From Ignavibacteriales bacterium (GTDB lineage: Bacteria > Bacteroidota > Ignavibacteria > Ignavibacteriales > Melioribacteraceae): a DNA stretch of 32,662 nucleotides. The notes beneath the pieces are model-generated. The model worked only from the letters and a program-made list of their open reading frames with translations. It was not told the origin of the DNA and ran no database searches. Location: the NCBI GenBank assembly GCA_003599395.1, contig QZJX01000036.1:1-32662 (forward strand), written 5' to 3'. Of the stretch, positions 12,006 through 17,003 are shown piece by piece (the first letter of the stretch is position 1; each line of letters begins with the position of its first letter). The position numbers were made by a program, and so were the translations under genes.

Positions 12006-13472
12006 CTAAATCTCAAACCACTTCTCAATTACTTTGTGCTGATTGTTACCTGAGATATGATAGTACTCATTTGTTTTGGGAGAATAAGTATAATCCTGTT
12101 CCCACGTATTAACATTATCGATTATCTCTTTAATTGCATTTAAGATGAAGTGCAATTCATCGTTTGTCATAGTTGGATGAAGTGATAAACGAACCCAACC
12201 TGGTTTTTCTGAAAGATCACCATGGTTAATTTTGTCGGTGATTCTTTTTGAACGTGTTGGATCAACGTGAAGTAAATAGTGACCATAAGTTCCGGCACAA
12301 GAACATCCACCGCGAACTTGTATACCGAATCTGTCATTAAGAAGTTTTACCATGAGATTGTAGTGAATATCTTCAACATAAAAAGAAATAACACCAAGTC
12401 TGTTTTCAAATTCCGGGGCAAGGATATGGACACTCGGTAAATTATGAAATTCTTCGAATGCAATTTTTAGTAACTCATGTTCACGTTCGAGAATATTTTT
12501 AGTACCCATTTCTTCTTTCAGTTTAATTGCTAAAGCTGTTTTGATAGTTTGAAGAAAACCGGGAGTACCGCCATCTTCGCGTAATTCAATATCATTTACA
12601 TATTTATGTTCACCCCAAGGATTAGTCCAATCTACCGTTCCACCTCCTGGATGATCCGGAATTTTTCTTTTGTAAAGAGATGAGTTGAATACAAGAACTC
12701 CGCTAGTTCCTGGTCCGCCTAAGAATTTATGAGGTGAAAAGAAAATTGCATCAAGTTTTTCTTCGGGATCTTCAGGATGCATATTCATATCAACGTAAGG
12801 AGCTGCAGCAGCGAAATCAATAAAACATAATCCACCATGTTGGTGCATTTTCTTTGCCATCTTGTGGTAATTGGTTTGCACACCGGTAACATTTGATGCG
12901 GCAGTAAACGAACCTATTTTTAGTTTTCTATCTTTATAAACTTCTAATTGTTCTTCAAGATGTTTTAAGTCAATATAACTTCTATCATCCGGCTCAATAA
13001 TTACAACGTCACATATAGTTTCCAGCCAAGAAGTATGATTGGAATGATGTTCCATGTGTGTAATGAAAACAACGGGTTTGTCTTCCTTTGGAAAGTTTAA
13101 GTAAGCTTCAAGCTGTTCACAAACCCGCAAACCCAAAATTCTTTGAAGCTTGTTCACCATACCGGTCATACCGGTACCTTGAGTAATTATTACGTCATCA
13201 TCTGCGGCGTTGACATGCTTTTTTATAATTTCTTTTGCATGATGATAAGCTAATGTCATGGAAGTTCCGGTATAACTCGACTCGGAATGTGTGTTTCCTA
13301 CATTAGGGTAAAATTCGTTAATAAGTTTTTCTTCAATCGGTTTATATAATCTTCCGCTTGCAATCCAATCTGCGTAGATTAGTTTTTGTTTACCGTAAGT
13401 TGAGGTAAACTCTTGATCTATTCCAATTATGTTTGATCTAAACTTCTGAAAGTAATCTTTAAAATCAGTCAT
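12006..13472 (-). CDS. Class-V aminotransferase-fold PLP enzyme, cysteine desulfurase/selenocysteine lyase-like
   Basis: A 488-aa PLP enzyme of fold type I. Seen: YADWIASGRLYKPIEEKL and NTHSESSYTGTSM near the N-terminus, the cofactor His region THMEHHSNH (about 139-146), the PLP-ring Asp in CFIDFAAAAPYVDMN (Asp219), the Schiff-base lysine in FFSPHKFLGGPGTSG (Lys249), and a cysteine loop VRGGCSCAGTYG (Cys390, Cys392) at the place of the SufS catalytic Cys. It is longer than typical SufS (about 406 aa) and has no suf or isc neighbours, so a housekeeping Fe-S role is uncertain. It could be a specialised desulfurase or lyase. Substrate unknown. Confidence 0.8.
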   Translation of the reverse strand: MTDFKDYFQKFRSNIIGIDQEFTSTYGKQKLIYADWIASGRLYKPIEEKLINEFYPNVGNTHSESSYTGTSMTLAYHHAKEIIKKHVNAADDDVIITQGTGMTGMVNKLQRILGLRVCEQLEAYLNFPKEDKPVVFITHMEHHSNHTSWLETICDVVIIEPDDRSYIDLKHLEEQLEVYKDRKLKIGSFTAASNVTGVQTNYHKMAKKMHQHGGLCFIDFAAAAPYVDMNMHPEDPEEKLDAIFFSPHKFLGGPGTSGVLVFNSSLYKRKIPDHPGGGTVDWTNPWGEHKYVNDIELREDGGTPGFLQTIKTALAIKLKEEMGTKNILEREHELLKIAFEEFHNLPSVHILAPEFENRLGVISFYVEDIHYNLMVKLLNDRFGIQVRGGCSCAGTYGHYLLHVDPTRSKRITDKINHGDLSEKPGWVRLSLHPTMTNDELHFILNAIKEIIDNVNTWEQDYTYSPKTNEYYHISGNNQHKVIEKWFEI

Positions 13473-13697
13473 TAAAAAACCAGTTTAATTTGCTGTAAAT
13501 ATAAAGAATGATTTTAATTTATTCGAAATATAGTAAAATTAAATAACTGGAATCTTTGAGCAGTAGAATCTGTTCAAAAAAAAAAGATATAAACTCCAAT
13601 AAACAATTATCATAAATTCGTTATAGATAATAATTAATAATCATTTTATCTTTAAACTGTAGAATCAAAAGTAATAATAAAAAAAATGGGTTGTTAT

Positions 13698-14837
13698 ATG
13701 AGAAAAAATCAATTAGGAAACATCATATTTACATTATCAATTTTAAGTTTTTTAATTAGCTGTAATGATAGCATGAATGAAAGTATGGGAACGGAGAATT
13801 TAATTTCCGAAGTCGAAAATGAAAGTTTAGAAAATAGTGAAAAACGGACTAATGAAGTAGTCTCGAAAGTACCGGTTGATCCGAGGGGTATTGAAGTCGG
13901 GTGGCAAATACTTTATGAATATGAGTTTGATCACTATGTTGCTAAAAGTGAGTTTGGTATCTGGCCAACAGAATATAGACAATATGCTGGTAGTTCGGGA
14001 GATCCAGATAGAATAGCAAAATTAAATGAGCTTCATTCGAAGTGGGGTTTCAATTATATAGCAGCTTATATTGGTGTACTACCAAATATTACTGCAATAG
14101 AAGCTGCAGGTTTTCCAAAAGAAACAAACTATATGGCAATAGTTGAGGCAAATCAAGCCGGGAGAGATGCAGTTGCAAATGTTTATAATGGGCTTTCTCC
14201 GAATGACTATTTCTGGGCGTATTATACTGATGAGCCTTACAGTAATACTGACCATCCTCCGTATACACAATCCTTTTTAAAATCCTTCAGAGATTATGTT
14301 GTTCAACTTCGACCAATTTCCTTTTTTGGCTTTGGCGAAGTGTCCGTAAACGAAGCTAATCGATATACACATGATCCATATTATTGGTACGGAGTTTATC
14401 ATCCTAATTATCATGTCGTAACCGTAAATTTTATTTCATGTACAAGATATTGGGATTATTTCAAACGAAATGATCAAAGACCTTTGTGGACTGAGCTGAA
14501 GAATAAATATGAGAGTACTTTTTCCAGAACATGGATTTCAGCGAATTTGGATGGTAGCGAATTTTCAACCCTATTAGGTTATTGTAAGAATAATAATATT
14601 GCTCCTTGGTTATTTCAGGCTTTAGACGCTAACGACTTAACGGATGGGATGATATCACAGTATTGTGATGCCGCAAGGAACGCAGGTTTCCTTGATCGCT
14701 ATGATAAAAAATATAAAGTTTGGTACAAATGTACACTCACTCATAGTCATGATCCCGCAAAACCTTACTTATGCAATTGGGTTGAAGATCGAAGAGTGCT
14801 TGAGGGAATTTATTTTATGCCTAATAATCCACAATAA
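13698..14837 (+). CDS. Predicted lipoprotein of unknown function, possibly glycoside-hydrolase-like
   Basis: I do not recognise the family. From ATG 13698 (preferred over 13686 because it gives a clean signal peptide) it has 379 aa with a lipobox LISC and Cys22, then a polar Ser/Glu-rich linker to about residue 58. The mature part is rich in Trp and Tyr. Segments such as WGFNYIAAYIGVLPN, FWAYYTDEPY (adjacent Asp-Glu, Asp178/Glu179), LWTELKN and IAPWLFQALD are spaced like beta-strand ends of a TIM-barrel hydrolase; this is inference from pattern only. The C-terminal 62 residues recur in a truncated copy at 15516-15704. It is followed 15 nt later by a small beta-barrel gene, probably in one operon, so a surface or periplasmic role is likely. 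Confidence 0.75.
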   Translation: MRKNQLGNIIFTLSILSFLISCNDSMNESMGTENLISEVENESLENSEKRTNEVVSKVPVDPRGIEVGWQILYEYEFDHYVAKSEFGIWPTEYRQYAGSSGDPDRIAKLNELHSKWGFNYIAAYIGVLPNITAIEAAGFPKETNYMAIVEANQAGRDAVANVYNGLSPNDYFWAYYTDEPYSNTDHPPYTQSFLKSFRDYVVQLRPISFFGFGEVSVNEANRYTHDPYYWYGVYHPNYHVVTVNFISCTRYWDYFKRNDQRPLWTELKNKYESTFSRTWISANLDGSEFSTLLGYCKNNNIAPWLFQALDANDLTDGMISQYCDAARNAGFLDRYDKKYKVWYKCTLTHSHDPAKPYLCNWVEDRRVLEGIYFMPNNPQ

Positions 14838-14852
14838 AACGAGATAGTAAAC

Positions 14853-15407
14853 ATGAAAAATATAATTATTTTATATATCCTAGTTTCATCTTTAATTTCA
14901 GCACAAAGTCTTAAACTCGGCTTCCGACTTGAACCAAGTATTATTCTCACTGAAGATTATAATGAAAGTGGATTACAATTTACACCATATGGCTTAGCAA
15001 TAACTTCTATCTATTCACCCTTAAAAGATTTTGAATTGGAGGTAAGAGGTGGGTATTTTTTAGGTGGGGAAGATTTTACAGGTTTTGAATATGGGGCTTT
15101 TATAAATTATCGATTATTTAATGGTGATTTTCTACTCTCTGCTGGTTTATTAAACCATTTAAACAGTGCTTCCGGTCATAATACTAGTGTCTCATATGCC
15201 AAAGACCTACTTTTTACAGGGTTGGGTCTAAAATATTTAGTGGATTCTAAGCTAAGCGTAGACATGATGTATTTTTGGGCAAGTGACAAAGTTTATGGTT
15301 ATAGCTGGATTACTGATCATTCCGGCTTTAGTAGAATTATTGATAAAAGAATTAACGGTCTTCTTAAAATAGGGATTAGTCTAGCATTCAACATTATAAA
15401 AAACTAA
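14853..15407 (+). CDS. Small outer-membrane beta-barrel-like protein, paralogue 1
   Basis: A 184-aa secreted protein with a signal peptide ending about SLISAQS, then alternating polar/hydrophobic strands compatible with an 8-stranded barrel. It shares LGFRLEP, a G-rich LGGEDFTGFEYGAF segment, NHLN and a closing ISLAFNII with the proteins at 15717-16280 and 16304-16867, and is the most diverged of the three. It has no catalytic motif. It lies 15 nt after the lipoprotein gene; the same junction, with a similar spacer, recurs after the truncated lipoprotein copy, which shows that the two-gene unit was duplicated together. Function unknown; partnership with the lipoprotein is inferred. Confidence 0.75.
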   Translation: MKNIIILYILVSSLISAQSLKLGFRLEPSIILTEDYNESGLQFTPYGLAITSIYSPLKDFELEVRGGYFLGGEDFTGFEYGAFINYRLFNGDFLLSAGLLNHLNSASGHNTSVSYAKDLLFTGLGLKYLVDSKLSVDMMYFWASDKVYGYSWITDHSGFSRIIDKRINGLLKIGISLAFNIIKN

Positions 15408-15441
15408 AACCATAAAAACTTGGGTGAGCCCCTCAATAATT

Positions 15442-15704
15442 CAGCTTGTGCAAAATAAAATAATGTTGCACCTTGGTTTTTCCAAGCTTTAGATGTACAT
15501 GATTTAACAGATGGTATGATCCCACAATACTGCGATGCCGCTAGTAATGCTGGTTTTTTAGACCGATATGATAAAAGATATAAAGTTTGGTATAAATGTT
15601 CCTTGACGCATATTCACGATCCACAAAAACCCTACCTTTGTAATTGGATTGAAGACAGAAGAGTGTTTGAGGGAATCTATTTTATACCAAATAATCCATT
15701 GTAA
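15442..15704 (+). pseudogene. Truncated second copy of the lipoprotein gene (C-terminus only)
   Basis: The frame ending at 15704 repeats the C-terminus of the lipoprotein at 13698-14837: from its Met at 15516, 52 of 62 residues are identical by my alignment. Upstream, VAPWFFQALDVHDLTDG still matches IAPWLFQALDANDLTDG, but an in-frame TAA lies just before (around 15458), and further upstream the similarity fades. Many differences are synonymous third-position changes, so the copy probably stayed functional for a time before truncation. No signal peptide or start remains, so a remnant is more likely than a small gene. Confidence 0.8.
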
Positions 15705-15716
15705 AACGGAGGGAAA

Positions 15717-16280
15717 ATGAAGAGATTATTTTTTTTACTTTTATTCTTAAGTCCATTTATTTTAGCTCAAGGTATCAAGTTAGGCGTCCGATTAGAACCA
15801 GGTTATATTTATGCAAAGGATGGGAATCAATCGGATGATTTTGTGGCAGTATTTAATTTTTCAACAACCATTATTGTCGAACCAACTGATGCAATAGGTT
15901 TAGAGATACAACCTGGGATACTGATTGGAACTGATCAATTTACAGGAATAGAAATAGGTTCAATACTAAGATATAATATTCCGAATTCAGATATTTCTGC
16001 ATTATTTGGGATGAATCATCACTTTAATGCTTCCATTTCATGTAGTAATTTTGGGGGGAGCCAATCAGGGTATTTTCCTTTTTATGGAGTAGGGATTGGA
16101 TATACCATAAATCCAAATTTAAGATTTGATTTAAGTTACTTTGTTACATCTAGGAAGGAATATTCGGGTTACGATGTAATCGATTATATTACAGGAGAAA
16201 GAACACATTTTGATAGAACTATCGAAGGGATTGTTCGTCTTGGACTAAATATGGCGTTCGAAATAGTTTCTTTCAAATAA
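15717..16280 (+). CDS. Small outer-membrane beta-barrel-like protein, paralogue 2
   Basis: 187 aa; signal peptide MKRLFFLLLFLSPFILAQ, then barrel-like strands. Shared family marks: KLGVRLEPGYIYA, TTIIVEPTDAIGLEIQPG, GTDQFTGIEIGS, NHHFNAS, SGYFPFYGVGIGY, RFDLSYFVTSRKEYSGY and GLNMAFEIV. It is close to paralogue 3 and more distant from paralogue 1. The ATG follows GGAGGGAAA, a clear Shine-Dalgarno sequence. It lies 12 nt after the remnant lipoprotein copy, in the same order as the intact pair upstream. Function unknown. Confidence 0.78.
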   Translation: MKRLFFLLLFLSPFILAQGIKLGVRLEPGYIYAKDGNQSDDFVAVFNFSTTIIVEPTDAIGLEIQPGILIGTDQFTGIEIGSILRYNIPNSDISALFGMNHHFNASISCSNFGGSQSGYFPFYGVGIGYTINPNLRFDLSYFVTSRKEYSGYDVIDYITGERTHFDRTIEGIVRLGLNMAFEIVSFK

Positions 16281-16303
16281 ATTAAAAATACGGAAAAATT
16301 GAT

Positions 16304-16867
16304 TTGAGAATTCTGAAAAATTTTTTTACAGTGTTAATTCTTTGCCTACCACTTTCTGCTCAGGGTGTTAACTTAGGCTTCCGTCTTGAGCCTATTTATG
16401 TATTTGCCGAAGATGATGGGACATCAGATAATTTCTTTTCTCCTTATAGTTTAAAGATGTCTGTAATAGTGGAGCCGATCAATTCTATTGGACTAGAGAT
16501 AAGACCTGGGTTTTTAATTGCTGGAGAAGAATTCGTGGGATTTGAAGTTGGCACTTTCGCAAATTATAAAATTCCAAAGTCAAGTTTCTCAATCTTAGTT
16601 GGGATCAATCATTTTTATAAAACCCAAACTGGTGGAAATAATAGAGGCAGTGAAGGTGGGTATTTTCCTTTTTATGGAATCGGAATTGGATTTAACCAAA
16701 ATGAAAACATTAGAATTGATCTAAGTTATTTCATTACCTCACGCAAAGAGTATGCAAGTTACAGATATTATGATTATTCTTCTTTGAAAGTGTTACACTA
16801 CAAAAAAACTTTAACTGGTGTACTTAGAATAGGTTTAAATATCGCGTTTAATATTATACAATTCTGA
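16304..16867 (+). CDS. Small outer-membrane beta-barrel-like protein, paralogue 3
   Basis: 187 aa, beginning at TTG 16304; no ATG is available that keeps the signal peptide RILKNFFTVLILCLPLSAQ. Marks shared with paralogue 2 include NLGFRLEPIYVFA, SVIVEPINSIGLEIRPG, GEEFVGFEVGT, GGYFPFYGIGIGF, RIDLSYFITSRKEYASY and GLNIAFNIIQF. The last residue is Phe, the usual C-terminal signal of BAM-assembled barrels. It lies 23 nt after paralogue 2 and has no lipoprotein remnant of its own before it. Function unknown. Confidence 0.75.
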   Translation: MRILKNFFTVLILCLPLSAQGVNLGFRLEPIYVFAEDDGTSDNFFSPYSLKMSVIVEPINSIGLEIRPGFLIAGEEFVGFEVGTFANYKIPKSSFSILVGINHFYKTQTGGNNRGSEGGYFPFYGIGIGFNQNENIRIDLSYFITSRKEYASYRYYDYSSLKVLHYKKTLTGVLRIGLNIAFNIIQF

Positions 16868-17003
16868 CCAATTCAGGTAACCCCACTCAATACACATTCT
16901 GATTTAATAGTAATATTTAACATTACTTTAAATTCATCTATCAATTTATTCTAAAATTTTGTATTTATATACACAGTTGTGTAAAAAGTAATCTGGGAAA
17001 ATT

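What the first reader, a model, noticed from the sequence alone, without database searches (positions are those of the whole stretch)
13698..16867. Tandemly duplicated lipoprotein plus beta-barrel locus with one decayed copy
The order is lipoprotein, barrel 1, truncated lipoprotein, barrel 2, barrel 3. The remnant matches 52 of 62 C-terminal residues, and even the short spacer before the barrel gene is similar in both units, so the two genes were duplicated as a unit. The barrels diverged while the second lipoprotein decayed. I recognise neither family; conserved pairing suggests a surface lipoprotein working with, or displayed by, a small barrel.
Basis: partly seen in the sequence, partly recalled or inferred. 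Interest (0 to 1): 0.65.

Follow-up and report, generated by a model that had tools for sequence, protein, structure and literature searches.

The report
Swappable lipoprotein–barrel surface gene cassettes
This stretch encodes a lipid-anchored, sugar-enzyme-like protein followed by small outer-membrane barrels, and the broken copy between them is one case of a recurring pattern in related bacteria in which the tail end of the lipoprotein gene survives in front of a barrel gene, which suggests a surface gene set that is repeatedly reshuffled.

Summary
In detail: lipoprotein 13698-14837, barrel 14853-15407, lipoprotein 3'-end remnant 15459-15704, barrels 15717-16280 and 16304-16867. Neither family has a significant Pfam or NCBIfam match. 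Modelled folds: the lipoprotein is a TIM barrel resembling glycoside hydrolases plus a C-terminal beta-hairpin tail; the partner is an 8-stranded OmpA/NspA-type barrel. The block 13460-17002 is absent from a same-species genome and two same-genus genomes, which carry a short intergenic region there. In the family, 22 of 26 full-length tailed lipoproteins have a small outer-membrane protein gene next door; 0 of 9 tail-less relatives do. Orphan tails in front of barrel genes recur in other genera and in a second family. The remnant differs from its neighbour mostly at silent positions, so it diverged as coding sequence and was truncated late, rather than decaying slowly after duplication. Best reading: a modular surface locus whose lipoprotein body is replaced or deleted while tail end and partner stay behind, architecturally like orphan CDI/Rhs modules, with no evidence of a toxin. 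Biochemical function, tail-barrel contact and surface exposure are inferred, not shown. Threading of the lipoprotein through the barrel is unlikely.

The parts
13698..14837 (+). Lipoprotein (LIP): signal peptide ending ...SFLISC, TIM-barrel core (model residues about 81-333), C-terminal beta-hairpin tail (model strands 332-346 and 360-374); alternative start 13686
14691..14819 (+). The LIP C-terminal tail hairpin (module linked to the presence of an outer-membrane partner gene)
14853..15407 (+). Barrel 1: small 8-stranded outer-membrane barrel with signal peptide
15459..15704 (+). Orphan LIP tail: 81 codons homologous to the LIP C-terminal end (search match residues 300-382), in-frame stop just upstream
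15717..16280 (+). Barrel 2
16304..16867 (+). Barrel 3 (TTG start), 47% identical to barrel 2, no tail left in front of it
13460..17002 (.). Strain-variable block: replaced by a short intergenic region of about 170-180 bp in G060 (same species), G061 and G062 (same genus)

Best explanation
A modular, strain-variable surface locus of Ignavibacteriales. A lipid-anchored protein with a glycoside-hydrolase-like TIM barrel carries a C-terminal beta-hairpin tail that goes with a small outer-membrane partner encoded directly behind it (an 8-stranded barrel here; in a second family often another small lipoprotein). Loci change by recombination or deletion within the lipoprotein gene: the body is replaced or lost, while the 3' end of the old lipoprotein gene and its partner stay downstream as an orphan tail-partner cassette. 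The window shows the intact pair, one orphan tail-barrel cassette, and a third barrel whose tail is gone. SHOWN by sequence: the pairing, recurring orphan tails, strain-level gain or loss, similar cores that carry different tails plus partners. INFERRED: surface exposure, physical tail-partner contact, hydrolase or glycan-binding activity of the core, homologous recombination as the process.
For: Pairing: 42 tail matches in the family loci examined (26 full-length, 4 split, 12 orphan by script); full-length 20 of 26 with a small signal-peptide ORF by rule, 22 of 26 after reading two more (L155, L090 by HMM); orphan 12 of 12 by rule (but L074 is a frameshifted LIP and L152 lies at a contig end, so 10 clear). 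Tail-less LIPs 0 of 9. Lipid anchor: 21 of 26 tailed family members have a hydrophobic run ending in Cys against 1 of 9 tail-less; 5 of 13 in the second family by the same rule. Orphan tails in other genera and in family f2: L061, L065 x2, L067 x2, L076, L157, L163, L166; L189, L190, L191, L195 x2, L199. Module swap: window and L007 cores are alike (59% over 291 residues) but their tails (score 0.10) and barrels (0.05) are not. Turnover at one site: L061 and L069, same genus, share both flanks; LIPs give no blastn match while two downstream barrels align at 71% and 74%. L163/L075: LIP core deleted in one, barrel region 95.9% identical. L090 has one LIP-barrel unit more than L154, with 98% identical DNA over 3.3 kb beside it. 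Remnant substitution pattern. Absence in G060/G061/G062 with conserved flanks. A core with a T9SS sorting domain (L086, Por_Secre_tail 7.2e-8) fits an extracellular role.
Against: Tail type and partner type are only weakly matched (Mantel rho 0.253, 2 of 5000 permutations at least as high, 25 pairs; partial given core 0.231, 24 of 2000, 15 pairs): near-identical tails can precede unrelated barrels (L065). Three tailed LIPs of one genus have no barrel found (L160, L162, L164) and one has a broken barrel (L158). Barrels decay too (barrel a' in L090/L154). Barrels of this family also stand alone (L068, L078, L079, L081, L082, L096). In family f2, 3 of 6 clear orphan tails (L189, L190, L191) have no partner recognised directly behind them. 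An old duplication with both copies functional for long and a recent truncation cannot be told from an imported allele. Some split genes may be assembly errors; most genomes are MAGs or drafts.
Confidence: 0.55

Rival explanations
1. Plain tandem duplication of the lipoprotein-barrel unit followed by neutral decay of the second lipoprotein.
For: 79% DNA similarity that covers tail, spacer and barrel start in the same order and frame; tandem units exist elsewhere (L090).
Against: 36 of 53 differences lie at codon position 3, pS 0.76 against pN 0.091, no stop in 81 codons; with half of the differences placed neutrally, 1.1% of 2000 simulations had as few amino-acid changes. The same kind of remnant recurs in many genomes.
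Confidence: 0.15
2. Contact-dependent antagonism: the lipoprotein is an effector, the barrel (or small lipoprotein) its immunity partner, and orphan cassettes are kept for immunity to siblings with the old allele.
For: Same layout as orphan CDI/Rhs modules as described in PMC4927057 (passages); barrel kept while LIP is dead or deleted in L075/L163 (dS 0.082, dN 0.034); barrels in genomes without a detected LIP (G011, G045, G048, G056).
Against: The tail is about 45 residues and conserved, not a variable toxin domain; tail and partner types match only weakly; no PADLOC match; barrels decay too; no delivery partner recognised in the window.
Confidence: 0.12
3. Partner-switching archive: orphan tail-barrel cassettes are silent stores, and recombination at the conserved tail (5' arm) and a shared terminator (3' arm) puts a new barrel behind the expressed lipoprotein.
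For: L067 has the same 28-nt terminator-like element after each of 3 barrels, and its exact 18-mer core occurs only there in G022 (3 of 3) and once, in the array, in G019; L195 has a repeated hairpin after two barrels; 10 of 16 orphan tails hold no Met codon; tails are 92.7-95% alike in DNA within L065 and L067 while barrels differ.
Against: No terminator between the window's barrels and none by the same scan between the L195 units; promoters are undetermined; no pair of genomes was found with one barrel in both expressed and archive position.
Confidence: 0.18
4. Passive carry-over: barrel genes duplicate together with their ribosome-binding region, which lies in the 3' end of the lipoprotein gene.
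For: Tail end and partner ORF are close or overlap, most within about 60 nt and at most about 120 nt.
Against: Orphan tails reach about 90-240 nt upstream in frame with residues conserved; duplicated barrels would be alike, but those behind similar tails are often unrelated.
Confidence: 0.1

Closest known systems
Orphan toxin/immunity modules of CDI and Rhs loci (PMC4927057, passages read)
   Same: Full-length surface protein gene, partner gene, then displaced 3'-end fragments each with a partner gene, in tandem, sometimes with transposase genes (L065).
   Different: The C-terminal fragment is a short conserved hairpin rather than a variable toxin domain; partners are outer-membrane proteins; no toxin activity known.
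SitA/SitI lipoprotein toxins of myxobacteria (PMC5562445, passages read)
   Same: Polymorphic lipoprotein with a partner gene directly downstream.
   Different: SitA has variable C-terminal toxin domains and cognate immunity proteins (SUKH-family-like for SitI1); here a conserved TIM-barrel core and outer-membrane partners.
RcsF-OmpA (PMC7553776, abstract read)
   Same: A lipoprotein associated with an OmpA-type 8-stranded barrel protein.
   Different: RcsF binds the periplasmic domain of OmpA, which these 184-187-residue barrels lack; not encoded together (recalled).
Clan GH-A glycoside hydrolases and the Cwp19 functional region (structure matches)
   Same: TIM-barrel fold; an invariant Glu follows strand 4 (D-E-P motif), the usual acid/base place (recalled).
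   Different: 6-12% identity in the matches listed, no Pfam match, no clear Glu nucleophile at strand 7 (an Asp is near-invariant there).
OmpA/NspA/OmpW/Ail/Opa small barrels
   Same: 8-stranded barrel, Z 15.9 (OmpA, rmsd 2.5, 152 aligned) and 15.3 (NspA).
   Different: No significant sequence family match; arrays tied to a lipoprotein tail.

Membership tests
TIM-barrel glycoside hydrolase (clan GH-A-like) | TIM-barrel fold | tested here: met
   Model pLDDT 75.8, pTM 0.71; Foldseek best Cwp19 2.3e-5, then GH66, mannanase, GH39 and galactosidase entries; VIA Z up to 13.7, rmsd 4.4, 215 aligned, tied with non-hydrolase TIM barrels such as PdxJ and pyruvate kinase.
TIM-barrel glycoside hydrolase (clan GH-A-like) | Catalytic Glu after strand 4 | tested here: met
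   E179 invariant in 24 of 24 aligned members, right after model strand 174-178; the role is recalled, not tested.
TIM-barrel glycoside hydrolase (clan GH-A-like) | Catalytic Glu nucleophile after strand 7 | tested here: inconclusive
   Near-invariant D285 in the likely place; strand 7 not assigned by DSSP.
TIM-barrel glycoside hydrolase (clan GH-A-like) | Match to a curated family | tested here: not met
   No Pfam family for the window LIP, only scattered weak chance-like matches among 24 members; no NCBIfam match.
Small 8-stranded outer-membrane barrel | 8-stranded barrel fold with signal peptide | tested here: met
   for barrel 1; signal peptides read.
CDI/Rhs polymorphic toxin locus | Orphan 3'-end fragments with partner genes downstream of a full-length gene | tested here: met
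CDI/Rhs polymorphic toxin locus | Variable C-terminal toxin domain with a matched immunity protein | tested here: not met
   Tail about 45 residues, conserved across genera; weak tail-partner matching.
CDI/Rhs polymorphic toxin locus | Growth inhibition and immunity | not testable with these tools
   Needs co-culture.
RcsF-like barrel-displayed lipoprotein | Physical complex of lipoprotein and barrel | not testable with these tools
   The read-through tail-barrel model has pTM 0.59 and gave no interface measure.
SitA lipoprotein toxin | Variable C-terminal toxin domain on a lipoprotein; delivery by TraA/TraB | tested here: not met
   No variable toxin domain; TraA/TraB not looked for.

The most novel reading that the evidence does not exclude
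A previously undescribed surface-diversification or kin-recognition system of Ignavibacteriota: a constant enzyme-like lipoprotein with a conserved tail takes exchangeable outer-membrane partners from a downstream store of tail-partner cassettes, so that strains change their surface by recombination between tails.
Probability: 0.2. Interest if true: 0.78.

Novelty: new variant of a known kind. Interest (0 to 1): 0.52.

Why it matters
Arrays of displaced gene ends with partner genes are known mainly from toxin delivery loci. Here the same architecture appears around an enzyme-like lipoprotein and small outer-membrane barrels in a phylum with little genetics. It gives two unnamed protein families, a conserved tail motif that marks the loci, and a directly testable link between lipid anchoring, tail and outer-membrane partner. 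If the partners are exchanged, it would be a new route to surface variation in free-living bacteria.

Tried and rejected
Own-genome extra copies: none. Known family for the lipoprotein: Pfam, NCBIfam, PDB sequence and PADLOC searches gave nothing significant. Strict one-to-one matching of tail type to barrel type, my first idea, was tested and failed as a strong rule; 25 pairs were used, leaving out L067 orphan 2, the L087 orphan, L075 and all loci fetched later (L152-L205). A claim that barrels are always kept intact was dropped. A claim that every array has terminators between units was dropped. Positive selection on barrels: not seen; between-barrel dN/dS 0.15-0.22 with saturated dS. Mobile-element boundaries of the block: none seen in the empty-site comparison; edge identity is 88% on the left (13250-13459) and 99% on the right, which fits import by homologous replacement. 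The start-based OMP rule missed real barrels (L064, L155, one of L090), so I read those by eye or took the HMM hit. Literature: searches listed nothing that describes these families in Melioribacteraceae; this covers only that open-access library and those terms.
Full report
Observation. The remnant 15459-15704 matches the lipoprotein end at 79% over 250 nt, and with gaps the similarity runs through the spacer into the barrel signal peptide, 74% over 356 columns. 52 of 62 residues agree. The genome is a MAG-like draft (G000, 2.45 Mb, 117 contigs, 81% complete) and holds no further copies.

Where it comes from. Named relatives found with the family alignment are Melioribacteraceae and other Ignavibacteriales (lineage). 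A same-species complete genome (G060) and two same-genus genomes (G061, G062) lack both genes. Around the block, window and G060 DNA are 96-98% identical, but 13460-17002 is replaced in G060, G062 and G061 by a short intergenic region of 179, 172 and 181 bp that is conserved among those three. Identity falls to 88% just left of the block and stays at 99% on the right, as expected if the block came in by homologous replacement that included the start of the neighbouring gene. Misassembly is not excluded.

What the proteins are. The lipoprotein has no Pfam, NCBIfam or PDB sequence match. Modelled with 15 sequences it gives a TIM barrel (residues about 81-333) and a C-terminal hairpin of two long strands (332-346, 360-374). 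Structure matches are headed by the Cwp19 functional region and glycoside hydrolases, but Z-scores tie with unrelated TIM barrels, so only the fold is secure. G87, E179, D259, W264, W279 and L292 are invariant in 24 of 24 members, with E179 in a D-E-P motif right after strand 4; that this is the acid/base position of clan GH-A is recalled. The barrel models with pLDDT of 83-98 over residues 111-270 in blocks of ten and matches OmpA (Z 15.9, rmsd 2.5, 152 aligned), NspA (15.3) and OmpW (15.1).

Two classes of lipoprotein relatives. Nine family members of 260-290 residues lack the tail, have no small outer-membrane protein gene next door (0 of 9) and mostly carry an ordinary signal peptide (Cys-ending run in 1 of 9). 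Tailed members carry a lipoprotein-type signal in 21 of 26 by a strict rule; of the five misses two start at a contig end (L067, L076), L158 and L007 lack the signal region in the ORF used, and L162 has an Asp in the run. In the second family the same rule gives 5 of 13; several misses began inside the signal. Of 26 full-length tailed genes in the family loci, 20 have a small signal-peptide ORF directly behind by rule, 22 after adding L155 and L090; L158 has a barrel with a stop, and L160, L162, L164, all genus g3, have none that I could find.

Orphan tails recur. A tail profile found 44 matches in 22 of 79 genomes and 14 of 35 genera of the family. In the loci read, 42 tails: 26 full, 4 split, 12 orphan by script; L074 is really a frameshifted gene and L152 sits at a contig end, so 10 are clear. 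All 12 have a small signal-peptide ORF of barrel size directly behind. In the order, 46 of 164 genomes have the lipoprotein family at E <= 1e-5. Of 20 further loci, L195 shows lipoprotein (split), barrel, tail, barrel, tail, barrel; L189, L190, L191 and L199 also hold orphan tails, though L189, L190 and L191 have no recognised partner directly behind. In family f2 the partner is often a second small lipoprotein; the one scanned has no Pfam family. Ten of 16 orphan tails contain no Met codon, so many are probably not translated alone.

How the remnant arose. Lipoprotein tail against remnant: 81 codons, 53 nucleotide differences, 12/5/36 by codon position, pS 0.76, pN 0.091, no stop. In a null in which half of the differences fall neutrally on the remnant, 1.1% of 2000 runs had as few amino-acid changes. 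So both stretches were coding for most of their separation; the truncation is recent relative to the divergence. This fits a displaced allele, or an old duplicate lost late; the two cannot be separated here.

Turnover elsewhere. L163 and L075 share the barrel region at 95.9% over 771 bp, while the lipoprotein core is deleted in L163 and carries a stop in L075; barrel dS 0.082, dN 0.034. L090 and L154 are 98% identical over 3.3 kb of array and flank, but L090 has one extra lipoprotein-barrel unit bounded by repeats of the lipoprotein 5' end; both keep a further barrel broken by a stop. L061 and L069, one genus, share flanks at 77% upstream and 67% downstream; their lipoproteins give no DNA match but two downstream barrels align at 71% and 74%. 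L061, L062, L069 and L152 have similar downstream genes, so one site holds different contents. Window and L007 lipoproteins are 59% identical over 291 residues but have different tails and barrels.

What limits the reading. Tail and partner similarity correlate only weakly. Barrels occur alone in other contexts. Barrels also break. The terminator found after each L067 barrel is not in the window. No interaction, expression or activity was measured.

Comparison. CDI/Rhs orphan modules, as described in passages of PMC4927057, share the layout and two proposed reasons for it, retained immunity or a store of silent variants. SitA lipoprotein toxins (passages of PMC5562445) share lipidation and a downstream partner. 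Neither family's defining toxin domain is met here. OmpA was reported not to carry RcsF to the surface (PMC7553776, abstract), which counts against threading through an 8-stranded barrel. A core with a T9SS sorting domain in L086 is the best hint of an extracellular role.

Verdict. Real, recurrent and unnamed; architecture well supported, function open. Interest 0.52.

Noticed in passing
L061, L062, L069, L152 (downstream of the arrays): Arrays in four genomes of two genera sit before the same two genes (an alpha/beta hydrolase by Pfam in L061, and, by eye, a PLP decarboxylase), so one site acts as a hotspot.
   Followed up: partly
L065 6181-7446: A DDE transposase (Pfam DDE_Tnp_1 5.7e-17) is inserted inside a lipoprotein-barrel array.
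   Followed up: no
L192 467-1090 and similar genes in L188, L189, L193, L199: In one genus of family f2 a gene with a similar start lies before the lipoprotein; the L192 copy has a LuxR-type DNA-binding domain. It may regulate the locus.
   Followed up: partly
L067 1522-1549, 2239-2266, 2977-3004; L061 7877-7901: The same terminator-like hairpin follows barrels in arrays of two species, and its exact 18-mer core occurs nowhere else in those two genomes.
   Followed up: partly
L154 5431-6021 and L090 9176-9766 (reverse-strand coordinates): Barrel genes identical in two genomes (no synonymous or other difference) whose adjacent lipoproteins differ at 22 of 403 aligned positions: recent exchange or strong constraint.
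   Followed up: no
L086 8663-12322 (-): A 1220-residue protein joins the lipoprotein-type core to fibronectin III and a T9SS sorting domain.
   Followed up: no
window 13460-17002 against L106 and L107: The intergenic region that the block replaces is nearly identical between G060 and G062 although the neighbouring genes of G062 differ from the window by about 13%, which suggests a conserved regulatory region.
   Followed up: no
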